Positions 6,096-44,744 of a stretch of DNA of 64,000 nucleotides are shown piece after piece. The first letter of the stretch is position 1, and every line of letters begins with the position of its first letter. A program made the translations under genes and the position numbers. Source of the DNA: Calvatia gigantea (taxonomy: Eukaryota > Basidiomycota > Agaricomycetes > Agaricales > Lycoperdaceae); NCBI GenBank assembly GCA_025093985.1, contig JACAAK010000003.1, positions 4,154,001 to 4,218,000 on the forward strand, read 5' to 3'. The notes beneath the pieces were generated by a model. It was not told the origin of the DNA. It worked only from the letters and a program-made list of their open reading frames with translations, and made no database searches.

Positions 6096-6409
6096 GGCTG
6101 GTTCAGGATGCAGAGGCTGACACTGACAGAGGATGAGCTCATTGGAACAAAACGTGACACACAACACATCACAATTCCATCATATCCACACATCCTCACT
6201 ACATACACACCTAACAAAACACAACACCTCTCAATCGCTGTTCTTTTCTGTGCAAGCTCAGCGCCCGTGCGTCAACTTGGCCAATTAGGTGGATTTTTAT
6301 CGCAATCAGCATCGTTAAAAAAAAAACTCACTTTTCCTCTGCCACGCTTACGTTTTGCAGTTGAAACTCTGACGTCCCACATACGGCTGAGCGATGCACA
6401 GACAATCGC
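6096..6409. promoter_or_regulatory. Bidirectional intergenic region between dynactin and raptor
   Basis: About 314 bp separate the two inferred start codons, so promoters for both genes must lie here or in their leader regions. The stretch is CA-rich near 6170–6230 and holds a run of nine to ten adenines near 6319. No specific factor-binding site can be assigned with confidence. Confidence 0.4.
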
Positions 6410-9400
6410 GTGCATCACAGAACGGCACAAGCTACGATAATGGTGGGTTTTTGTTCCAGAACGTTTCCATGTCCCGTTTTATATAATTTCCTCCCCCTCC
6501 CCGCGAACCAAGGCGTTGTCTGGCCTCCAGGTCCTAATTCTAGAATCGATACCCAGAGCTCAGATTCAGATACCGAACGCGAGTATCATTCTACATCCTT
6601 CTCAGACCCTTCCGCGCGAAATTTTCAAGGAAGTAGCGATATCCATGCCGGTGTTAGCCCCCCAGAAAACAGCACCCCATCCATAGATGACATCCCAGAC
6701 TCCGGACCTCCTATTCCATATTGGTCCGTCAAACGACACCTCACATGTGGCAATCCAACTCCAGGTCCTCCATGGTCCCAGCAATTTATGCCCTGGCGTG
6801 GTTCTGCGCCTGGAAAACTCAAGACTGCCAATGCTGCGCTTGTTTTGTGTCTCAACATCGATGTCGACCCTCCAGACGTCGTAAAAACCAACCCTTGCGC
6901 CGTGTTGGAAAGTTGGGTCAACCCTCATACCCTTCCATCGCATAAAGCACTGGAAGCCATCGGATCCAACCTTCAACATCAATTCGAAGGTCTTAGCCTC
7001 AAGATTGCTTACAAACCCATACTTGACCCTTCGTTGGAAGATCTCCGTCGTTTCTGCCAGACCTTACGTAGGCAGGCTAAGGACGATGCTGTTCTGTTTT
7101 ACTATAATGGCCATGGTGTCCCTAAGCCAACCTCAAGTGGCGAACTATGGTGCTTCAACCGCAACTACACGCAGTACATCCCAGTATCACTGCAAGAGGT
7201 ACAAAGTTGGATTGGGTCCCCAGGCGTTTATATTTGGGATTGCTCAGCGGCCGGTTACCTCCTCAACAACTTCAATACCTTTGCTCGACGACGTGATCAG
7301 GAAACGCGGGCGGCTCGTGGAGAATTTCCCGAGGGTGTGCATCCCTTTACAGATTCATTGCAACTGGCAGCTTGTGGCCCGAACGAACAATTACCTTCAT
7401 GTCCAGAGTTACCCGCGGATGTCTTCACGGCCTGCCTCACCTCTCCTATCGACATCGCCCTTCGCTACTTCATCATGAACAACCAACTCCCCAATGGTAT
7501 CTCTATAGACATGGTTATCCAACTCCCCGGAGACCTCAAAGACCGTCGCACGCCTCTTGGAGAACTTAATTGGATTTTCACCGCGATCACAGATACTATT
7601 GCTTGGACGACCTTCCCTCGCGATATCTTCGTGAAGCTATACCGCTCCGACCTTCTCATTGCCTCCCTGTTCCGCAACTTCCTTCTCGCAGAACGCGTCA
7701 TGAAGAATTATCATTGTACACCTCTCACCGAACCACGCCTCCCACCTACAAACACCCACCCGCTATGGGATACCTGGGACCTAGCCGTTGACGCGTGTTT
7801 GCGTCAGCTCCCTGACCTCCTCTATCGACCTCCAGAACTCAGGGGCGGCAACCTCGCAAAACTTGGTGTCACCGCGGACAAGTTAGGTCAACCGGGGAAA
7901 GACCCATTCGGTGGCCTCTTCAAACCACCCGATGCTAAACCCTACGTTTACGTTCCCAACCGATTCTTCGCTGACCAACTCACCGCATTTGAGGTCTGGA
8001 TATCACGAGGTGGATCTGCGTTGACCAAACGGGGACCAATGGCTCTACCTCTAACAAGTCCCAGTCTAGATGCCACACCTCTGCCCATTACACCATTACC
8101 CACCGCCGGAGATATCAAACCAATAACAATACCCACCACTCCACTCACCGACAAGCACGCACTCCACCAACGTTCCGTGGAAGACTTACGGCAAGTACGT
8201 CCCAAGCTAGACGGGATCAACGACCAACGTCACCTCGTACCCCGTAAACCACCCGACCAACTCCCTATCGTCCTCCAAGTTCTCCTTTCCCAACCTCACC
8301 GCCTCCGCGCACTCATCCTCCTCTCCCAATTCGTCGATCTGGGTCCATGGGCAGTCCATTTGGTTCTTACTATCGGGATCTTTCCTTACATCTCTAAACT
8401 CCTCCAAGCAGCCGGTCAAGATTTACGTCCAGTTCTCATATTCATCTGGGCGCGCATTTTAGCCGTGGATCAATCCGTTCAAGCCGATTTATACAATTCC
8501 TCCGGATTCAAATACTTCTCCACGGTTCTGGGATTAAAAAGCGACGATGTCCTACCGAAACAGTTCCTGAACATAAAGCAATGTGCTCCTTCATCCTCGC
8601 CGCAGTCTCTCGCGACTTCCCACACGGTCAAGCAGCCTGTTGGGCCGAACGCGTTTTCGATAACTGCTACGACCGTCTCGAAGAGCCCGATTTCCTATTA
8701 AGACAATGGACGGCTTTGTGTATCGCGCAGATGTGGGCTGGGAACGACGAAATCAAAGTCTATGGCGTCGATCATGGTACACAAGATAAATTAATCAGAA
8801 TGTTAGCTGATGATTCGGCGGAAGTGAGGTCTGCGGCTTTGTATGCCCTTGGGACGTTCATGGGAGCGAGCGGGTCTGCAGGATGTGAATAGACCTGGAG
8901 GAGGGGGGACTGGGACTATGTATCAGTTGGATGAGAGAGGTGCATTTTAGGATGGAGGTGGCCGTTGCTACGGGTGCCACGCTCGCTATTAAGGATGATG
9001 CGAATCCGATGTGTAGGAAGGAACTGTTAGTCGTGGTGAGTTGTTTGGTGAAAGAATGGAGAGGGTATTTCGTAGTGTGTGCGTGGTTGTATTGGGAGGA
9101 AGATAGGAGGTGGAGGGCGGGTGCGACGGGACATAGTTCGACGGCGTATATCCATGAAGATGATGTGACGAATCAGGCTGTGCAGGAGTGGTTGGATAGT
9201 TTTGGGGATGATGATATGTTGAGGGAGGAGAATCGTGTGTTGTTGTCGTCCTTTTTTACGATCTTTGTGGTGCTTTTGGATCTTTCGGTGGACCCGTATA
9301 CGGAGGTTGCGGCTTTGGCGCAGACGATTGTGGATTATATCATGGCCTTGTTGCTGGAATCGCCGTTTACGAAATTGGATAGTTCGACCCTCGACGTGCC

Positions 9401-11740
9401 ACCGACAGTACCGAACGAGAAACGTTCTGGACCAGCGCTGCATATAGGCCTTGAACGACCAAGGAATCATTCTGCTGCTGCTGCTGCTGCTGCTGTTGCG
9501 GCTACTCCAGTCATTGCACCTCCTTCACCGAACCCCGAGCGACCTGCATTAACAAGAAGTGATACCCACCCGAATCCACTGTCCAGCACTCTCAAACGTA
9601 CATCATCTTTCGCCAATGCGACTTCTTCGTTCATCAAATCTTTTGCTTTTCCTTCGGGTGTATCAGACGGGGGTAGACTGTCACCTGCACCTCCTCTTTC
9701 CGGATCGACAAGCTCCCAAGACCCAATTGACCTAACGAGCGCACCTCCACCTAACCTCAATGTCGCGAAATACGAATCGCCATATCCCTTACCCGGCTCA
9801 ACCATATTATCAAGTGAAAGGAGGTTCACCACAAGCGCGACAAACTCACCGGGTCAAACACAAGATGTCCCTCAACATCACTCACATAACTTCCAGCCCT
9901 TCGACGTCATGGAAGCATTGATGGAGGAAGATATGGAACGATTACGTGCGAGGCGACGGACGGGATTGTACCCGAGGAAGAATCATCACCAGAGTCAAGG
10001 ATATGGTAGCGGCAGTACTGGGATGCCAAGTCCAAGCAACAGCACGTTCTCGAGGGATTCGGGTGATAGTAATGTGATTCTGGGGTTGGGAACGGGAACA
10101 GGGATTAAGGATGTGTTACCTTTGAGGAGTACGTTTTTTGACTGGTGCTGTGAGTACTTCAAGGAGCCCCAGATGCGGGTGAGTTGTTTCCTTTGCCTTT
10201 TTTTTTTCTTCTCTAGATAATTTTGATTGGGTATTACATTTAGCAAACGGAGGCGGATGAACCTGGTAGCATGCAATACAACTACCAAGTATGGAGGAAT
10301 GAGAGAAATGACAAGGTTACGAATTTGACGAGGGAGCAGGCGCAGAATGCTGGTGAGTCGGTGATTGCTGCTCTGTATAAAATTTGCTATAGGCGTTGGG
10401 CCAGATTTCTGTCGTTGGGATAGACCTGTGGCGACGATACCAACCAGTGGATACCCGTTAACAATGGCATTCCATTCATTCGACCAACAGCTCGTAGTTG
10501 CGAATGAGAGTGACATGATCAAGTGTGTGCAGTTCCACTCTTCGTGAAAGGGCTACAAACTGATGGTGACCGAAGCGTATACGATTGGTCAACACGGAAA
10601 CGGTTGAGCCAGTGGTGTAATGGAAACCCCAAGAGCGCGGGCATCACCTCCGTGCTTATCATTAACCAGCATGTTGGTGGTATCATCGTTGTAGGATCGT
10701 CGGAGGGCATTGTTCGACTATATCGCAATTATGACCCGGTCCTGGAGCAGGGTCCTGTGCAGATGGTCAGCGCATTCCGGGCGCTGAACGAGGTTATTCA
10801 GGTCCGACAGGGGACCGGCATGGTTCTCGATTGGAAACAGTCTGCTGGAACACTTCTTGTAGGAGGCGACTCGCGGGTTATCAAAGTGTGGGATGCGCAA
10901 ACAGAAACCCAAGGACTGGTAGGTCTTCTCCACTACGTATCCACGGTTGGGAAACTGAATATCGGCGCTTTAGGATATGGATACCAACTCGGAGTCTCCT
11001 GTTACCGCAATAGTTTCCGATATGGGCAACTCGCAGACATTTGCTGCCAGCTTTGCCGATGGAATGGTCAAGATATTTGATCGGCGGATTGAAGAAGAGG
11101 ATTCCATTGTGAGGACATACTCGGATCATTCATCTTGGGTGCAAAATGTGCGTTGGCACCCGAAACAAGGGTTGCAGTTCATGTCAGCCAGGTCCGTCAA
11201 TTGTTGGTTTCTCTATTGGCTACCCTTAACCATTATTCGTGGCAGCCTGGACGGTCAGGTCAAGCTATGGGATATGCGAGGGCCTCCTCTACCAATCAAG
11301 ACATGGCAGATTCTGCCCCAGGGTCTTTCTGCATTTGATACACATCCCCTGACAGGTGTTTTTGCTGCGTAAGGCCATCCTTTCCTTCCCCATTCCCAAT
11401 TACTGACTGATCCTACCTCTTAGGTCGTCCGCCATCGGTCCAACTAATTGGCGCGCACAGAAAATTGTTGTGAATTCATTAAGCCAGCCCGAACCTCTTT
11501 CCGCTTTCTACATCCAGACTGGTCTATCCATGGCGCCTCTACGTTCACCACCGTCTCAGTACATCCCTAGACTCAGCTCGTTGGTCTTCCATCCCAAAGA
11601 AATGCTTTATGGTATGGGCCTGCCTGATGGTACAAGTAAGTATTCCACCTTTGCCTACTGTTCACGACCGTGTCTGATCCGCTTTATTAGTTCGCATTAT
11701 GGGATGCAAACTCCCCGAGCCGGAACTTCCATCAATGTGA
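6410..11740 (+). CDS. KOG1: Raptor homologue (KOG1/Mip1), TORC1 scaffold
   Basis: The N-terminus carries the raptor-specific caspase-like (RNC) domain: KIAYKPILDPSLEDLR, FYYNGHGVPKPT, then ELWCFNRNYTQYIPV and VYIWDCSAAG. HEAT/ARM-like repeats follow (about 8250–9400), then a Ser/Pro-rich linker with an alanine run, and a seven-blade WD40 C-terminus (about 10420–11740) with DWSTRKRL, VIKVWDAQT, MVKIFDRR and VKLWDMRG. Raptor recruits substrates such as S6K and 4E-BP-type proteins to TOR kinase. Introns of 50–60 nt interrupt the 3' half, and the final exon ends at the TGA at 11740. The start may be 6410 or 6440. Conserved reading passes through three single-nt frame breaks near 8564, 8881 and 8934–8942; for example, the HKAMCSFILAAVSRDFPHG block is in a different frame from the preceding exon. 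As raptor is essential in studied fungi, assembly indels are the likelier cause. Confidence 0.94.
9471..9498 (+). repeat. GCT trinucleotide repeat coding poly-alanine in raptor
   Basis: About eight GCT units follow HNHS-type sequence and code an alanine run in the disordered linker between the HEAT and WD40 parts. Such runs vary in length between strains; no functional claim is made. Confidence 0.8.
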
Positions 11741-14308: not shown

Positions 14309-16912
14309 CTAATAACCTGTATGTGTTGATATAATTCCATTGGGACTGAGTCCACCCTTCGTCCAGTGCTCGTTGCCAGCTATGAAATCCCCGCGAACAA
14401 CTTTCCCTCTTGTTTGCACAATTCCATGATTTTCGACTTTGACATAAACCCCTTCTACTCTTCCATCATAAAATTGAGATGTCGACTCGATGAGCTTCAG
14501 CAGTCTCTCCTGTGAGGGAATCTCATTTTGCAGTTCGCAGATTATCGGAACAATAGCAATTGATGTGGCTCGCAACAAAGCTTCTAGTGTATCCCGGTCC
14601 ACAAATTGGCGAGTGCTTCGATCATACAAGTCGAATGCGATGAAAAGATCCGGAACGTGTGTGTAGGCAATAGAATGGGTCGCGTACATCCATTCTCCGA
14701 ACAAGATATAGCGTTCGGCGTAGTAAGGGTCACGGTCGAGAACATGATAAAGCTCCGAGCGATGTTGTTCAACCCACTTTCCCAACTTCTTAAACTGCTC
14801 ATGGGTTTGAGGGTTAACGAAATGGGAACGGTTTTGAATAAGGATATTAGAGCAATCAGGGGAAAGCGAAAAGCCCATGTTAGCACCGTCGATTTTCTCC
14901 GTGATGATCACCCGGCCAGAGACTTTTCGACTGGGATTATAGTCCTGGGAAATAATGTCGTCGGCCGCAGCGCCTCCAACGTCCATTAAATGTGCCGTAC
15001 GAGGAAACTTGAACACAGTAGTGGGTGATGGGGACAAATGCTGGACCAATTCTAAAGCAGCTTGGAAGGACCTGATCTTGACAATTGCAACAAATCCTTC
15101 AGACAATGTTGGCCTGGCAAACTGCTGTTGCATCTGAGCGATTCCATTGCGGACGCGACCACCAGGTGGGAGAGTGGGGTGTCCTATTCGCATCTGGGCT
15201 CTTGATGTACAGAGTTCACGATCATAATCAAACCAGACACACACAGGCGAGGTCGCCCAGTTTGACGCCAATCCCAGCCATTCTTTCCTGTCTGCACCCG
15301 AGGTGTTGCAACGGTCCAGCAATGTTATCTTGTGTCCGGAATTTTTCGACATTGTGCTCTTGCATGAAGCACGGCTGCCGGTCTCATCTTGGGAAATACT
15401 CCGGTAGTGTTGTGGGGCTCGTGCGACTAAGGCATTGGAAAACCATGATTTTCCTGAGCCAGGCAGACCAACAAGAACGAAAAGGTTGCACTCTGCCGGG
15501 ATCATCCCTTCAATTTCCATTGGGCAAGGGGGAGGTTCAGGGGGTCTTTCGGGGTAAATAGCTTGTCGTTTCCATATGGTGCTGCACCACTTAGAAACAA
15601 ACCCTTCCTGTTGTGATGTTTCTATGCTTCCGGGCCTGATAGAGCGCAGCACCTTAACTGCTTCTGAAGCAGCCATTTCGGGCTGGGTAGCGTATGGGTT
15701 CAGTTTCTTGAAACCACAGGCAGCAAGGTAGCAAGCAACTACCGTACCCGCCCTTCCTTTCCCACCGCCGCAATGAACCAATACTGGAAGCTTTTTATCA
15801 TCGCTCATGAGCTGCATGATTATATCCATCTGCTCAATTGACGGTGGATAATAGTTGGGGATGGGTAGGAACGTGTTGGATATCGACTTGTTCTTGAACC
15901 AAGAAGGAGGGAGTGGGGTTTCTTCTGTAAGAGTCAACACATGCCGAATGCCGAGGTGGGGTGATGCAAGAACGTTTATGTCTTCGTCGTTCCTGGGCGT
16001 GGACATAACGGCTAAGTGATATGGAATAATCCAGCGAAAGAACCGAGGTAACTTGTGGTAAACACCGGAGCTGGTGGGGACCAACAAGGCGTCCCGTGGT
16101 TCAAGACAAAGGGAAGGAGTCGCTTCCAAATCACTGAGTTTCTCTCGAAGAGGCGTTGACCAGGGTGTGAGCAGTAGACTCGGTATGTCGGTTGCCTTCT
16201 CTTGTTCTTGCAAGATGGTGCCCCATTCCGTTCCTTGAGAGCAATCTAGCATCTTCTTAATGCAGTAGCCCTGCAACTTGTTGTCGTCCGTTCGGTCATG
16301 GGCTTGCGCATAGGCAAGCATAGCGTCCTTTAGACACCCCATAGCAAATGATGCGTCACCATAACGAAAGAACCCTTTCTGTGAGTCAGGATAGACGGTC
16401 ATGAGCTCCAGGGCGGAATCTCTGGCATCCGAATAACGCGAGAGGATAAAGGAAGTGAAAGATGAATGATCAAGGAATTCTGCAGCGAGTAAGGGAGGTT
16501 GGCCGGGAAGAAGTGAGCGGATGCCCTTGTCCATCTCGTGATCGTCATAATCAGTCAGGGTAATATGGAAATGTTTCGGTGGAAGTCCAAGTCGTCTTCG
16601 AAGTTGCTGACCCGCAGCCCAGATGATAACGATGAATAATACGTCATCTTTTCCCCCTCCAATACCTGCAGCAAAGACGTGTTTGGTATCTAATTTGGTT
16701 GATTCCTCGTTGATTTGTTCCAGACGGGCTGGTGGCAAGCGTTTTAACTCGTCTTTGGAAATGAGGGTAATATGATATAGCCTTTGGGGATGCGGCCGAG
16801 CAATTTGTATACGAGAACATTTCGAGATTGCTGTATTGGCCATCTCGGTGAGGGAGGGTCCAACAAGGGCCCAAACGCCGAGTAGTTTGCGCAAAGAAAG
16901 AGCCATGCGCAC
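14309..16912 (-). CDS. Five-module RNA repair enzyme: 2H phosphoesterase–TPR–DSP phosphatase–PNK kinase–Rnl2-type RNA ligase
   Basis: This single uninterrupted exon codes 867 residues. Residues 40–150 hold two H-x-T motifs (H47-I-T49 and H116-I-T118), the signature of 2H phosphoesterases that open 2',3'-cyclic phosphates. Residues 150–220 look like TPR helices (KGFFRYGDASFAMGCLKDAMLAY is the core; only the pattern is claimed). Residues 285–450 form a dual-specificity phosphatase with the C-x5-R loop HCGGGKGRAG (C381, R387). Residues 475–630 are a P-loop kinase: Walker A GLPGSGKS (K488), then LLDRCN (531–536) and RIGHPTLPPG, like polynucleotide kinases. Residues 635–860 form an Rnl2/REL-type RNA ligase with motif I EKIDGA (K673 as the nucleotidyl lysine), motif III FGE (E740), motif IV EGVYVK (820–825) and motif V KVVR (837–840). 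Together these could heal and seal broken RNA ends. The order differs from fungal tRNA ligase Trl1 (ligase–kinase–CPD). It diverges from the Kti13-like gene. Substrate is unknown. Confidence 0.88.
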   Translation of the reverse strand: MRMALSLRKLLGVWALVGPSLTEMANTAISKCSRIQIARPHPQRLYHITLISKDELKRLPPARLEQINEESTKLDTKHVFAAGIGGGKDDVLFIVIIWAAGQQLRRRLGLPPKHFHITLTDYDDHEMDKGIRSLLPGQPPLLAAEFLDHSSFTSFILSRYSDARDSALELMTVYPDSQKGFFRYGDASFAMGCLKDAMLAYAQAHDRTDDNKLQGYCIKKMLDCSQGTEWGTILQEQEKATDIPSLLLTPWSTPLREKLSDLEATPSLCLEPRDALLVPTSSGVYHKLPRFFRWIIPYHLAVMSTPRNDEDINVLASPHLGIRHVLTLTEETPLPPSWFKNKSISNTFLPIPNYYPPSIEQMDIIMQLMSDDKKLPVLVHCGGGKGRAGTVVACYLAACGFKKLNPYATQPEMAASEAVKVLRSIRPGSIETSQQEGFVSKWCSTIWKRQAIYPERPPEPPPCPMEIEGMIPAECNLFVLVGLPGSGKSWFSNALVARAPQHYRSISQDETGSRASCKSTMSKNSGHKITLLDRCNTSGADRKEWLGLASNWATSPVCVWFDYDRELCTSRAQMRIGHPTLPPGGRVRNGIAQMQQQFARPTLSEGFVAIVKIRSFQAALELVQHLSPSPTTVFKFPRTAHLMDVGGAAADDIISQDYNPSRKVSGRVIITEKIDGANMGFSLSPDCSNILIQNRSHFVNPQTHEQFKKLGKWVEQHRSELYHVLDRDPYYAERYILFGEWMYATHSIAYTHVPDLFIAFDLYDRSTRQFVDRDTLEALLRATSIAIVPIICELQNEIPSQERLLKLIESTSQFYDGRVEGVYVKVENHGIVQTRGKVVRGDFIAGNEHWTKGGLSPNGIISTHTGY

Positions 16913-17109
16913 GGGTGGGAATATAAAAAAAGGGTGACAGTGGTTGACGCGTTTGACGACCGAAAACTCGCGAGATATAAGCCTGGCAATGCCATGTCGT
17001 GAGTCACCCTTACAATGAGACGTTTGTTGTTGAGGATGTGTGAGCGGTGTGGCTGTGCTGCTCCGGTCCCGCTCAGCTTGAAACCAGGTCCCGAATCATC
17101 CAACGTAAC
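16913..17109. promoter_or_regulatory. Short divergent promoter region, RNA-repair gene / Kti13-like gene
   Basis: Only 197 bp separate the two opposing start codons (16912 and 17110). Both genes must share this space for initiation, making co-regulation plausible. No named motif was identified. Confidence 0.5.
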
Positions 17110-18487
17110 ATGCTCAGTCTGTTATCCGCAGGTTCAAACGCACAGGGTCAACTTGGCAATGCAACAGTTGATGACTCGCATATTTTCCAGACTTGTTCGT
17201 TCGCTGGAGCACCACCCGGTACCATTCCTTCAAACACCATCCGTGTCCTTGACATTGCGAATGGTTCCAATCATACGCTTGTGCTTTTGGAGGTTACGGC
17301 CAAGGATAACTCAAACCAAAATGAAGTGTGGGGCTGTGGTGATGGGAGGAAAGGCCAGCTAGGACCAGTATACCAGAGGCAATGCACAGATCAGCACTCC
17401 ACAACAATCTTCCGGCCCTTGGTTTTCAATGAGGCTCTTGAAACACTGGGCCTGGCGGGCTATGCTATTGTTGGTGTCGGAGCAACATGGGAGACGTCGT
17501 ACTTGGCACTTGCGCAACCTGGAAAACACGATGTCATTGTATCTTTTGGTTCAAATGAGTTCGGAGGCCTGGGTGCAGGGAAGGATAGCGGCGACAAGTT
17601 GATGGTGAAGGGACCGGGTGCCCATATCGTCGACTTCTCCCATGTTGTCGTAAATGGGAGAGTAATCAATTCTGCGCAAACCATTACAATTGAGAAGATT
17701 CGAACCGGTCAGAGACATGTCATCGCGTTGCTGGAAGTTACCTGGGCAGGAAAGGAGCCTACTCAAGTGCTGGTTGGGTGGGGTGCTTGTCGGCATGGTC
17801 AGCTCGGTAATGCGCCAGCCTCTGCTAGAAGTCAAGCCAGCGGTTCTAAAAAGGAAGGAACTGGTGCTGTACCCCAACCTGTCTATCACTCCCATCCGAC
17901 ACTCATGTCGACAAATACACCGTCAGATCCCGTCATTGAATATTCCCTAGGCATTCAACATAGTGTCTTCCTACACGCATCCGGACACGTGTCAGCCCAA
18001 GGTTCCAATCGAAAGAACCAGACTCAATCACTCGACAGTCTTCAGGATATCCGTGATATTAAATGTACTTGGAACGGAACCTACGCACTCACAGCCGACA
18101 ATCCTCCTCGCATTCCTCTCTACGGGTAGTAACTCGCACGGCCAGTTGGGGAGACTAGATGACGCTCAGACGCCAGAGGTTATGGGTGTACCGCTGGCGG
18201 AAGCCGGTGTAAAGATTAAAAGTATGGTGTGCGGGAGCGAGCATTCATTACTTTGTCTATCAATTGTCGGACAAGAGGATGAGGTTTGGGGCTGGGGTTG
18301 GAACGAGCATGGAAATCTGGGTATTGGAAATACTATCGACTCGCCGACACCGCTGAAAGTCTGGCCACTACCACAATGGCCGAAGGACATTGAAATTCAT
18401 CCCGTCTGCAGTATTTGGGCTGGAGCTGGCTCAAGTTGGATACTTTGTGGCATGCCACTGGTTGACAAGGCAGAGAACACGACTTGA
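17110..18487 (+). CDS. ATS1: RCC1-repeat protein resembling Kti13/Ats1
   Basis: Repeated RCC1 blades are evident: SAGSNAQGQLGN at the start, VWGCGDGRKGQLG, VSFGSNEFGGLGAGK, VGWGACRHGQLGN, STGSNSHGQLGR and VWGWGWNEHGNLGIGN. The protein is short (about 455 residues), starts straight with a blade and has no kinase, FYVE or HECT partner, which fits Ats1/Kti13 better than the nuclear GEF RCC1. In yeast Kti13 pairs with Kti11/Dph3 and supports Elongator-dependent tRNA wobble-uridine modification and diphthamide synthesis on EF-2. The start ATG at 17110 precedes the first blade. The reading frame breaks by one nucleotide near 18100–18108 (before AFLSTGSNS); a 30-nt GT–AG stretch nearby is too short and does not change phase, so an indel is likelier than an intron. 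Other RCC1-only proteins remain possible. Confidence 0.74.
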
Positions 18488-24887: not shown

Positions 24888-26590
24888 TTAGGCGCGGACT
24901 GCCTTTGTGCCCCGCGAATAGAATTGTTGATTTTTTTTAACAAAAAGCAAGAACTGGTCAATACCGACAAGACCAACAATGTTGCCGGCAGGGCAGTCCC
25001 CAATGGGCTCAATGTCACGACCAGTCATAAGAACAACACGCTGGATGGATCTGATAAATAGATCGTCCTTGCCAGGAACGTATTTGGGACCTTGGATACG
25101 GATCTCAGGACCAGCCTTGACAGAACCAGAGAAGACACGACCGAAGGCACAGAACCGTCCCTCATCGGAATTTGGCACCATCTTGGAAACATAAAGGACG
25201 AGAGGACCATTAGGATCGCAATCTCTAATACCAATAGCAGATTCATCATCCATAGGACCCTGGTAGAGGGTTTGGACGCGATATCGCTGAGCGGTTGCAG
25301 GAGAGGGGAGGTTGATGACAATAACCTCCAAGAGTGAATCACCAGCAGGGAGGAACTTGCGCATGATGGCTTTAAAAAGGGCCTCGCCTTCAAGGTCACG
25401 TCCATCTGAAGTAAGTTTGACGTTGAGCCTCTCGCAAAAGGTAGCGAAGGCGTCCCTCCTAAAGTTCATGGCGGCATCGAACACTTTGAAGATGGGGTCG
25501 AGGACGAACTGGTTGAAGGCGCGCTCGAGGGGCTTGCCAATAGCATCTGTGCCACTCAAGGTCCACATGCGGGTTTGGGGGTTGAAGTAGTTGTCACCCC
25601 AGAGTTTGTTCATCATTTTGTCCCTGTCGACGCCGAACTTCTTGCTGTAGCGGGTAGCGAACTGGCGAAGGGTGAAACACCACCCATGAAGACCCGAACT
25701 GAAGGCAACGTTGCCCTTGCCTGGATAGACCTGGACATCACCAAGAGCTTCGTCGTGGTAGGTGGAGATGATGACATTAACTGATTCGATGGTTTTTTTG
25801 AAAGATTGGTAAAGGGACTCCTTGTCGACTTGGAGCTCAAAAAGAGCGCGATCGACCATGTTGACGATAACAACAGGTTTAACGCGTTCTGCGAGGGCCT
25901 GGCGAAGCACCATTTCGGTCTGTATACAGACACCCTCAATGCAGTCAACAACAACAAGAGCACCATCAGTGACACGGAGAGCAGCAGTAACTTCAGAAGA
26001 GAAGTCGGCGTGTCCTGGGGAATCAATTAGGTTGATCAAGAATTCGTGGCCTGAAAGCCAAATTTAGCGATCTCTGATTCACAAGCGAAGGGACTTCAGA
26101 TTTGCCCGAAGTGACATACCTTCAGTCTTTTGCTTGATCGAACTAACCTCTTCCTTGCTGACCTCGAAGTACATCGGGATAGCGGTAGATTTAATGGTAA
26201 TATCACGTTCTTTTTCGTCCTCTCGTGTATCTGCGAACTGCGTATCACCAGCCTGGGAAGCAGCAATGGTCCCAGCTTTGGACACGAGGGAGTCATGAGA
26301 GTGGACTTTCCGCGACAGACTACTCGCATGTCAAGGTCTGTCGCTTGGGTACAGAGGTCGAGGGCAACTCACAGTGAGCAATGACACTTATGTTACGAAT
26401 GTTGGTCGGACGGCCCATAAGGGTCCGAATCTTATCTATTGGTGTGGAAACTCGTGTAAGTACGGTCCATGAGTGGCGGTTTTTTGCTCACCAACTGCGA
26501 AGTCACTGTAAGAGTCGATAGGGATGTTGATCAGTGAGATGAGGATATTGACTGGGAGTTTAAACGCACACCATAACGAGGTACTGTAAT
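24888..26590 (-). pseudogene. Elongation factor 2 relic, 5' part (GTPase domain and domain II)
   Basis: On the minus strand the conserved EF-2 amino end appears: DKIRTLMGRPTNIRNISVIAH (about 26440–26385), [36 protein letters not shown], then after an intron [32 protein letters not shown] and finally [17 protein letters not shown]. Homology stops at about 24945 and reads out through unrelated codons to a stop at 24888. The P-loop motif HVDHGKST is damaged (CRGKST), with a one-nt deletion right after it near 26295, so GTP binding and frame are lost. Intron positions are preserved, arguing for a broken genomic copy. Domains III–IV, including the diphthamide region, are absent here. Confidence 0.9.
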
Positions 26591-43504: not shown

Positions 43505-44573
43505 TTACAAAATCCGATATTCCTCGAATGTAAGCTCCTTACCATCAAAAGGTACTTTGGCGCTCCCACTAAACCCATCAGAAAAGATCAGAGACTGATT
43601 ACCACGAGCAGGTATAAGTAGCATACAGATGTTCTCCAGTCTTTCCGGGAACAACCAGACCATTCATATTGGCGAGTGCATGATATAACTTGTCTCCTTT
43701 TTCTTCGTGACCACCCTCAATTGCACGTCGACCTGGAGGAATGTGACCACCAGAGGTAGGAATCCACTCCATCTGGTCGGGGATAAAAGGGAGGAGATCA
43801 TAGTGACCATCATGACAGTATTCCCTTCCATCATACGGAATGCACACTGGCGGTTGAAGATGGTACCCGATCTTGCAAGGGTGAACCGAATTCTTGAAAA
43901 AAGCCGACCCAACAAAAAGAGGAGAGATGCCACCAACATCGTATGTGACAGGAGGGCCGGTCTGGTTAGGCGGGGGAGTGCCGGAATCAGTCCGAAGTGA
44001 CAGACGATACCCCGAGGGTGGCGTGGCCTCCACTGTTGATGCTGGTGCGGTAAGAGGTTTCGGAGACGATTTAGTATCTATATCCACTTGTTGATAGTCA
44101 GGTGATGGCGCAGGGGGCTTAGTGAGGTCATCAACTTTGGTTGTAACGTGCGCCTGGGAGTTGGCCGGGAAAGGTGGACCCTCAGCCGCAGTTTGCGGTG
44201 CTTCATCAACGACGGTGCAGTACTCTGATCCTTTGTGACCAGACCTCGAATTGGACGAACTGTTGTGCCCATCTGGAACCCCCCGTTTCTTAGTTATACC
44301 TTTGTCCTTCTTCTCTTTGTCCTCAGCCTTCCCTTTCTTGTCATTTTTGTCTCTGCTACTGTCCGTATCTTTTTCCTTCTCCTCCTTCTCGTTATCATTC
44401 TTCCTATCTTCGCTCTCAGGTTTCTCTATCAGAATGAACCCCTGCTCTTCCTCGGAATACTCCTCATTGCAAGAGTCCCACCCAGAATCAGAGGGGCATG
44501 CTGATGAAGATGGATGAAAACGAAGAAGTGAGTAACAGGCGGTCAAGGCGATGGGTTGTGAATGTGGTGTCAT
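43505..44573 (-). CDS. DM9-domain (DUF3421) protein with charged low-complexity N-terminal half
   Basis: The C-terminal part reads MEWIPTSGGHIPPGRRAIEGG, then EEKGDKLYHALANMNGLVVPGK, and after an intron GSAKVPFDGKELTFEEYRIL with stop at 43505–43507. The pattern W-I-P-x-S-x-G-x-I-P-P-G...A-I-x-G-G and L-x-P-G-K is the DM9 repeat known from fungi and animals, in some cases carbohydrate-binding. A preceding copy-like block (PLFVGSAFFKNSVHPCKIGYHLQP..PYDGREY) resembles the second DM9 repeat. The N-terminal half is Lys/Glu/Asp-rich (EKEEKEKDTDSSRDKNDKKGK) then Pro/Thr-rich. The 5' exon may hold an unrecognised intron; the Met at 44573 is provisional. Confidence 0.72.
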
Positions 44574-44744
44574 TGAGGTAATAAGCTAATATAAACACGT
44601 GGAAGCTACGATCACAAAGTTAGAGGAAAATAGGATTCTCCTCAGTACCCAAGTTGACTCTTTGCTATTACCATTCGTCATGTCATAATTCTGAGAGGGA
44701 CATGATCCAAGTCCATCCAAGTGGCCCAATCCCTAAGGTATAAC

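What the first reader, a model, noticed from the sequence alone, without database searches (positions are those of the whole stretch)
14309..16912. Single-protein RNA healing-and-sealing pathway: 2H–TPR–DSP–kinase–Rnl2 ligase
One intact 2.6-kb exon joins five modules that together could repair any cut RNA: a 2H domain with two HxT motifs (47–49 and 116–118) to open cyclic phosphate, a C-x5-R phosphatase (C381/R387), a P-loop kinase (K488) and a full Rnl2-type ligase (K673, E740, EGVYVK, KVVR). Known fungal tRNA ligase Trl1 has the opposite order (ligase–kinase–cyclic phosphodiesterase), a different ligase type and no tyrosine-type phosphatase. A DSP in place of the usual 2'-phosphotransferase step suggests that the 2'-phosphate, or another phosphate, is removed within the same chain. 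I do not recall a characterised protein with this architecture.
Basis: partly seen in the sequence, partly recalled or inferred. Interest (0 to 1): 0.88.

Follow-up and report, generated by a model that had tools for sequence, protein, structure and literature searches.

The report
Five-module RNA repair enzyme
A mushroom gene encodes one protein that appears able to clean up both ends of a cut RNA and rejoin them; it belongs to a widespread family that protein databases already name but that, as far as could be found here, nobody has tested in the laboratory.

Summary
On the minus strand, 14309-16906 (first ATG) is one intact exon encoding 2H - TPR-like - DSP phosphatase - P-loop kinase - Rnl2-type RNA ligase. 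It is not a new design: Pfam names two of its domains "Swiss Army Knife", and the same order occurs in many other fungi, a moss and a fern. So it is a new member of a known, apparently untested family. The genome also carries pieces of all three Trl1 domains and of Tpt1, so this is an extra pathway.

Most likely role: full RNA repair. 2H opens the 2',3'-cyclic phosphate, DSP removes the remaining phosphate, the kinase phosphorylates the 5'-OH, the ligase seals. None of this is shown biochemically.

What was added: across 246 aligned proteins (window included) the DSP has Asn at the usual loop-Asp acid (234 of 246) and Ala for the Ser/Thr after the catalytic Arg (245 of 246), but keeps the Glu equivalent to DUSP23 Glu134 (245 of 246). 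A dedicated RNA-end phosphatase of modified DUSP23 type is the testable new idea.

The parts
14309..16906 (-).
16538..16807 (-). 2H phosphoesterase domain (2H-SAK, PF22547), residues 36-125, HxT at 47-49 and 116-118
   Evidence: Pfam E 1.8e-18; all four H/T kept in 98 of 121 aligned proteins
16127..16492 (-). TPR-like helical region, residues 141-262
15566..16057 (-). DSP/PTP-type phosphatase domain (PTP-SAK, PF22784), residues 286-449
15746..15775 (-). Phosphatase P-loop HCGGGKGRAG (residues 380-389): C381, R387, A388
   Evidence: C381 246 of 246, R387 244 of 246, A388 245 of 246
15854..15856 (-). N353, at the position of VHZ loop acid Asp65
   Evidence: alignment, counted by hand; N in 234 of 246 rows
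15620..15622 (-). E431, at the position of VHZ remote general acid Glu134
   Evidence: alignment, counted by hand; E in 245 of 246 rows
15029..15490 (-). P-loop polynucleotide kinase domain, residues 475-628, K488, D509, R575
14369..15022 (-). Rnl2-type RNA ligase catalytic domain, residues 631-848, K673, E740, E820, K837

Best explanation
It is an orthologue of the 'Swiss Army Knife' (SAK) family: a single-chain RNA end-healing and sealing enzyme working beside the genome's ordinary Trl1/Tpt1 pathway. Proposed cycle: (1) the 2H domain opens a 2',3'-cyclic phosphate left by a metal-independent RNase to a linear monophosphate; (2) the VHZ-like DSP, through a phosphocysteine on C381 with E431 as likely proton donor, removes that phosphate to leave 2'-OH/3'-OH; (3) the kinase adds a phosphate to the 5'-OH; (4) the Rnl2-type ligase adenylates itself on K673, transfers AMP to the 5' phosphate and seals, leaving no 2'-phosphate scar. 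The TPR-like segment probably positions modules or binds a partner. Shown here: the domains, their order, their intact catalytic residues, predicted folds and wide conservation. Inferred: every reaction, the order of steps, and the substrate. Most likely job (inference only): repair of RNAs, tRNAs among them, cut by ribotoxins, antiviral RNases or stress RNases.
For: Four Pfam domains above cut-off. Full-length model pLDDT 92.6, pTM 0.87, matching VHZ, polynucleotide kinases and T4 Rnl2/Naegleria RNA ligase in the expected stretches. Near-absolute conservation of kinase and ligase catalytic residues (K488 245, D509 245, R575 246, K673 246, E740 246 of 246 aligned proteins). Same five-module order by my own profiles, built from these proteins, in 120 of the 121 proteins of the first set (window included) and 66 of the 74 proteins first listed by the distant search. 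In bacteria, archaea and phages the nearest ligase relatives are separate ORFs, with a kinase-like ORF in the held flanks of 37 of 226 loci. In jumbo phages 2H enzymes are proposed to open cyclic ends and other phosphatases to remove the linear phosphate before ligation (PMC7824862, passage). Trl1 and Tpt1 exist separately.
Against: No biochemical or expression data. 13 of 121 aligned proteins have another residue at one or both 2H histidines. Of 120 proteins listed by the kinase-ligase piece search, only 1 shows all five modules; 46 are DSP-kinase-ligase, 27 TPR-DSP-kinase-ligase, 44 kinase-ligase, 2 ligase. That search excluded proteins over about 721 aa and many of these look like partial models, but the bdelloid rotifer and Phytophthora proteins start at or shortly before the DSP. 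The DSP lacks the usual loop Asp and the Ser/Thr after Arg, so activity on a plain phosphomonoester is not certain. The model says nothing on which phosphate it accepts.
Confidence: 0.68

Rival explanations
1. The DSP is an RNA 5'-end polyphosphatase (DUSP11/PIR1, baculovirus phosphatase, Mce1 type) that turns 5'-ppp or 5'-pp ends into ligatable 5'-p ends, so the enzyme handles two classes of 5' end.
For: The loop Asp is replaced by Asn in 234 of 246 rows; MCE1, baculovirus RNA 5'-phosphatase and DUSP11 are listed among PTPs whose host loop lacks the WPD motif (PMC9038691, passages).
Confidence: 0.12
2. The DSP acts on something else: a protein phosphosite, an ADP-ribose phosphate such as arises from the Tpt1 reaction, or it only senses a phosphorylated end without hydrolysing it, because Ala replaces the Ser/Thr that helps break down the phosphocysteine (that role is recalled).
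For: A388 in 245 of 246 rows; N353 in 234 of 246. Two other PTP-like stretches of the same genome keep RTG. Rhodanese-phosphatase enzymes are coupled to ADP-ribose processing in bacteria and phages (PMC9503650, passages).
Against: C381 246 of 246 and E431 245 of 246 argue for catalysis; the recurring fusion to kinase and ligase argues for an RNA-end substrate.
Confidence: 0.15
3. It is the fungus's tRNA-splicing ligase, doing the job of Trl1.
For: Carries the activities that Trl1 has, plus a phosphatase.
Confidence: 0.04

Closest known systems
'Swiss Army Knife' (SAK) proteins, Pfam PF22784 PTP-SAK and PF22547 2H-SAK
   Same: Both domains above curated cut-off, plus kinase and ligase; same order in fungal, moss and fern relatives
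   Different: Nothing that sets it apart; 51-75% identical to the 120 best relatives listed
Fungal tRNA ligase Trl1
   Same: 2H-type cyclic phosphodiesterase, P-loop kinase and ATP-dependent ligase in one chain (recalled)
   Different: Opposite domain order, ligase of RNA_ligase (PF09414) not RNA_lig_T4_1 type, extra DSP and TPR-like region; Trl1 domains lie at another locus here
T4 Rnl2 / Naegleria RNA ligase
   Different: Protein ends 27 residues after R840; the T4 Rnl2 alignment (2hvr_A, length 319) covers chain 0-231 only, so nothing matches its C-terminal domain; fused to healing modules
DUSP23/VHZ
   Different: Asp65 equivalent is Asn353; Thr after Arg is Ala388; fused to RNA kinase and ligase
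Polynucleotide kinases: Lichtheimia 9drz and Rhizopus 9d8a kinases, mammalian PNKP, Clostridium thermocellum Pnkp
   Different: PNKP and CthPnkp carry HAD or metallophosphoesterase phosphatases (recalled), not a cysteine phosphatase
Giant-virus proteins A0A3G4ZM97 (Terrestrivirus, 859 aa) and A0A2H4UUE0 (Bodo saltans virus, 649 aa)
   Same: Foldseek matches over 922 and 739 alignment columns, E 1.7e-62 and 8.3e-36, 26% and 24% identity
   Different: Viral; sequences and domain order not examined; rmsd over the whole length is large (30.8 and 21.0 A), so module placement in the models differs

Membership tests
SAK family | PTP-SAK domain above Pfam cut-off | tested here: met
   195.7 bits against 27
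SAK family | 2H-SAK domain above Pfam cut-off with two HxT motifs | tested here: met
   67.5 bits against 27; motifs at 47-49, 116-118
SAK family | 2H-TPR-DSP-kinase-ligase order shared with relatives | tested here: met
   120 of 121 in the first set (window included), 66 of 74 first listed by the distant search, but 1 of 120 from the length-limited piece search (profiles built from the same proteins)
SAK family | 2H fold by structure comparison | tested here: inconclusive
   TPR matches fill the lists for the N-terminal model; a viral 'Swiss Army Knife 2H' protein matches the full model at E 2.7e-5 over 158 columns, place not shown
SAK family | Biochemical RNA healing and sealing | not testable with these tools
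   no assay; no held paper found (10 paper searches)
Trl1 | RNA_lig_T4_1 (PF09511) ligase N-terminal to kinase and CPD | tested here: not met
   not among 17 families listed up to E 10; PF09511 matches of the genome lie on C77
Rnl2-type RNA ligase | Nucleotidyltransferase motifs I, III, IV, V | tested here: met
Rnl2-type RNA ligase | C-terminal domain after the nucleotidyltransferase domain, as in T4 Rnl2 (recalled) | tested here: not met
   protein ends 27 residues after R840; T4 Rnl2 alignment covers chain 0-231 of 319
DUSP23/VHZ phosphatase | CX5R and VHZ fold | tested here: met
DUSP23/VHZ phosphatase | Loop Asp65 and Thr after the catalytic Arg | tested here: not met
   N353, A388
PNKP | HAD 3'-phosphatase domain beside the kinase | tested here: not met
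   no HAD/PNK3P family among 17 listed up to E 10; TIGR01663 match confined to 463-614 and at 49.1 bits against a cut-off of 502.8

The most novel reading that the evidence does not exclude
The SAK DSP is a dedicated RNA-terminal 2'-phosphatase of the cysteine class, metal-free and NAD-free, using a remote Glu instead of the loop Asp. Together with 2H, kinase and ligase it forms a one-protein, scar-free RNA repair route distinct from Trl1/Tpt1, T4 Pnkp/Rnl1, CthPnkp and RtcB, spread patchily (probably in part by horizontal transfer) among fungi, plants, rotifers, oomycetes and giant viruses.
Probability: 0.4. Interest if true: 0.75.

Novelty: new member of a known kind. Interest (0 to 1): 0.42.

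Why it matters
If the inferred chemistry holds, one polypeptide carries a whole RNA repair pathway with a phosphatase class not known to me in RNA 3'-end healing. It would give fungi a repair route next to Trl1/Tpt1, a useful ligation tool for RNA work, and a test case for how RNA repair is used against ribotoxins and RNA-cutting immunity. The gene itself is an ordinary family member; what the family lacks, as far as I could find, is an experiment.

Tried and rejected
Rejected: 2H as an agaric-only addition. I noted this from the 413-aa kinase-ligase piece search, whose length limit (about 227-721 aa) excluded full-length proteins; the A3 search found 2H-bearing members in other Basidiomycota, Ascomycota, a moss and a fern, so I withdrew it.

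Rejected: gene-fusion artefact. The frame is one exon and the same fusion recurs in the first set.

Not found: the fusion in prokaryotes or phages. Of 226 locus entries scanned with my profiles (146 viral, 80 bacterial/archaeal; some are the same contig fetched twice), 189 had the ligase alone and 37 the ligase plus a kinase-like ORF; none had a SAK-type DSP, TPR or 2H hit at E <= 1e-3 within the 3-4 kb flanks held. The bacterial loci are the best 80 of 212 and the second viral set the best 80 of 115, so this is not exhaustive. It does not bear on the two giant-virus proteins, which I did not fetch.

Led nowhere: PADLOC gave no hit up to E 0.1; NCBIfam gave only matches under cut-off; no paper on PDB entries 9drz/9d8a (its 14 listed papers are unrelated by title); the 'Swiss Army Knife' paper search returned one paper, where the phrase is in a reference title about another protein. 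Foldseek of the N-terminal model gave no PDB hit at E <= 0.001, and I saw no 2H structure in the lists.

Not done: codon-substitution rates, expression data, giant-virus sequences, fitting of RNA ends into the DSP pocket, assembly of the Trl1 and Tpt1 genes, look-up of the taxonomy of named genera (their groups are recalled).

Full report
WHAT IS THERE. The frame lies on the minus strand, stop-to-stop 14309-17095 (928 codons), twice as long as the next on that strand (440). Pfam finds 2H-SAK at 38-125 (1.8e-18), PTP-SAK at 289-439 (5.8e-58), AAA_33 at 477-511 (4.5e-10) and RNA_ligase at 667-838 (6e-32), all over the curated cut-off. No intron-like GTRNG...CTRAY...AG triple lies inside (0 candidates). 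An RCC1-repeat frame runs the other way from about 17.1 kb, so the two genes are divergent neighbours.

RELATIVES. A whole-length search gave 399 proteins at E <= 0.001 among 7994 scored; the best 120 were listed, at 51-75% identity, and the named ones are Agaricomycetes by my reading of the genus names. The nearest named relatives are Macrolepiota, Leucocoprinus and Leucoagaricus, so the window probably comes from that part of the Agaricaceae. A search with a profile of distant members gave 166 proteins at E <= 0.001 among 7996, best 120 listed. Named ones with the full set include Cryptococcus sp., Vanrija, Kockovaella, Tilletia, Myriangium, Elsinoe, Bisporella, Choiromyces, Aureobasidium, the moss Ceratodon purpureus (on a 16-Mb contig) and the fern Adiantum. 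With my own five profiles (built from the same proteins), 120 of 121 in the first set (window included) and 66 of the 74 proteins first listed show 2H-TPR-DSP-kinase-ligase. Of the 120 listed by the kinase-ligase piece search, limited to about 227-721 aa, 46 show DSP-kinase-ligase, 27 TPR-DSP-kinase-ligase, 44 kinase-ligase, 2 ligase and 1 all five. Many look partial, but the bdelloid rotifer and Phytophthora infestans proteins begin at or shortly before the DSP. Against a simple loss in rotifers, an unnamed full-length member with 2H (P0253) groups with the rotifer rows (100/100).

In the BFVD library of viral models the two best matches are giant-virus proteins: Terrestrivirus A0A3G4ZM97 (859 aa, E 1.7e-62, 26% identity over 922 columns) and Bodo saltans virus A0A2H4UUE0 (649 aa, E 8.3e-36). 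A 46-row tree of the DSP-kinase-ligase core, rooted at the midpoint for drawing only, does not follow species: the moss joins Ascomycota, Tilletia and tremellomycete rows (99/98), the fern joins Aureobasidium (98/86), and Kwoniella joins the window and Leucocoprinus (100/98). Horizontal transfer would explain this; contamination of single assemblies was not excluded.

CATALYTIC RESIDUES. In the 121-row set kinase K488 and D509, ligase K673, D675, E740, E820, K837, R840 and phosphatase H380, C381, K385, R387, A388 are invariant; N353 is N in 119, D in 1, gap in 1. In a 246-row set (119 near, 127 distant; 69 of 315 proteins dropped by a 520-1060 aa length filter) K673, D675, R695, E740, R575, H578 and C381 are 246 of 246; R387 244; K488 and D509 245; K385 209 (Val in 32). 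The 2H site is less constant: 98 of 121 keep both HxT motifs, 13 of 121 have another residue at one or both His positions, and four more have gaps there. In the 246 rows H47 and H116 are His in 170 each, with 62 and 61 gaps.

THE ODD PHOSPHATASE. The alignment with DUSP23/VHZ, counted by hand, puts N353 at VHZ Asp65, E431 at Glu134 and A388 at the Thr after the catalytic Arg. In VHZ, Asp65 is subservient to the remote Glu134, the primary general acid; CDC25, PTEN, MCE1, baculovirus phosphatase, DUSP11 and Siw14 are named as PTPs without a WPD motif (PMC9038691, passages). In the 246 rows position 353 is N in 234, D in 7, R in 1, gap in 4; position 388 is A in 245 and T in 1; position 431 is E in 245 and K in 1. 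As a small control, two other PTP-like stretches of the same genome keep RTG in the P-loop, and the one that reaches the loop shows an Asp there by eye. So the family keeps one proton-donor candidate and has lost two canonical helpers. I read this as a specialised, still active enzyme; an inactive or phosphate-sensing role is not excluded.

OWN GENOME. The window lies in a 46-Mb assembly of 77 contigs. It has one RNA_ligase (PF09414) match, this gene; pieces of the Trl1 ligase, kinase and CPD domains in a row on C77:2179934-2182404 (one ligase piece reads through a TAG, as an intron would cause, and the gene was not assembled); Tpt1 pieces spanning the domain on C45:670628-671409; and no RtcB match (the same search found RtcB in 9 of 14 control genomes). 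A 98-aa piece of that Trl1 kinase matches two PDB 'tRNA ligase' sequences (E 0.0006 and 0.098) and not 9drz or 9d8a, so the SAK kinase looks like a different, PNKP-like one. The SAK protein is therefore most likely an additional pathway.

PROKARYOTIC AND PHAGE RELATIVES. The stand-alone ligase relatives in bacteria, archaea and viral contigs are 23-42% identical over their best segments. 223 ligase ORFs (profile E < 1e-10) have a median of 258 residues. A kinase-like ORF lies in the held flanks of 37 of 226 locus entries (34 viral, 3 bacterial), but no SAK-type DSP, TPR or 2H. So the fusion is known here only from eukaryotes and, by structure match, giant viruses; it may have been assembled from parts like those of phage repair systems (inference).

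MECHANISM. Recalled from the families, except as cited: 2H enzymes open 2',3'-cyclic phosphates; Trl1 seals ends that carry a 2'-phosphate (PMC11071452, passages); T4 Pnkp makes 2',3'-diol and 5'-phosphate ends for T4 Rnl1 (PMC3400036, passages); in jumbo phages 2H enzymes are proposed to open cyclic ends before other phosphatases clear the linear phosphate (PMC7824862, passage). A phosphatase beside 2H and kinase would likewise clear the 2'- or 3'-phosphate so that the seal carries no scar. This is inference.

PRIOR KNOWLEDGE. The Pfam names 'Swiss Army Knife', and a viral protein named 'Swiss Army Knife 2H phosphoesterase', show that the family was described before. From memory, the likely sources are Burroughs and Aravind 2016 and 2023; both titles appear in a reference list I saw (PMC12419801) but neither is held, so I have not read them. 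Ten paper searches found no held paper that characterises such a protein; most subscription papers are outside that library. Papers seen as passages only: PMC9503650, PMC7824862, PMC3400036, PMC11090510, PMC12419801, PMC9038691, PMC11071452.

VERDICT. The novelty claim falls: this is a new member of a known, apparently untested family. The value left is the unusual phosphatase, the wide and patchy spread, and a clear, cheap set of assays.

Noticed in passing
window 17044-18129 (+): RCC1-repeat frame (PF00415, 2.8e-13) divergent from the SAK gene; its first ATG is about 0.2 kb from the SAK ATG.
   Followed up: no
window 6365-8701 (+): Frame with a Raptor N-terminal caspase-like domain (8.9e-63); frames at 10514-11372 look WD40-like by eye, so probably the TORC1 subunit Raptor.
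   Followed up: no
window 43599-44585 (-): Frame with a DM9 repeat (8.5e-24).
   Followed up: no
window 24888-26063 (-): Exon of an EF-Tu/EF-G type translation GTPase.
   Followed up: no
relatives P0006, P0064, P0079, P0100 and nine others: 2H histidines replaced by Tyr, Arg or others in 13 of 121 aligned proteins while DSP, kinase and ligase residues stay intact: the cyclic-phosphate step seems to be lost repeatedly.
   Followed up: partly
BFVD A0A3G4ZM97 (Terrestrivirus), A0A2H4UUE0 (Bodo saltans virus): Giant-virus proteins matching most of the SAK model, suggesting viruses that repair RNA with the same tool.
   Followed up: no
P0261, P0309, P0132 in the 46-row tree: Moss, fern and Kwoniella members sit among distant fungal lineages: horizontal transfer or, for single assemblies, contamination.
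   Followed up: partly
PDB 9drz (Lichtheimia) and 9d8a (Rhizopus): Short solved kinases from Mucorales are the closest PDB relatives of the SAK kinase; no paper on them found.
   Followed up: partly
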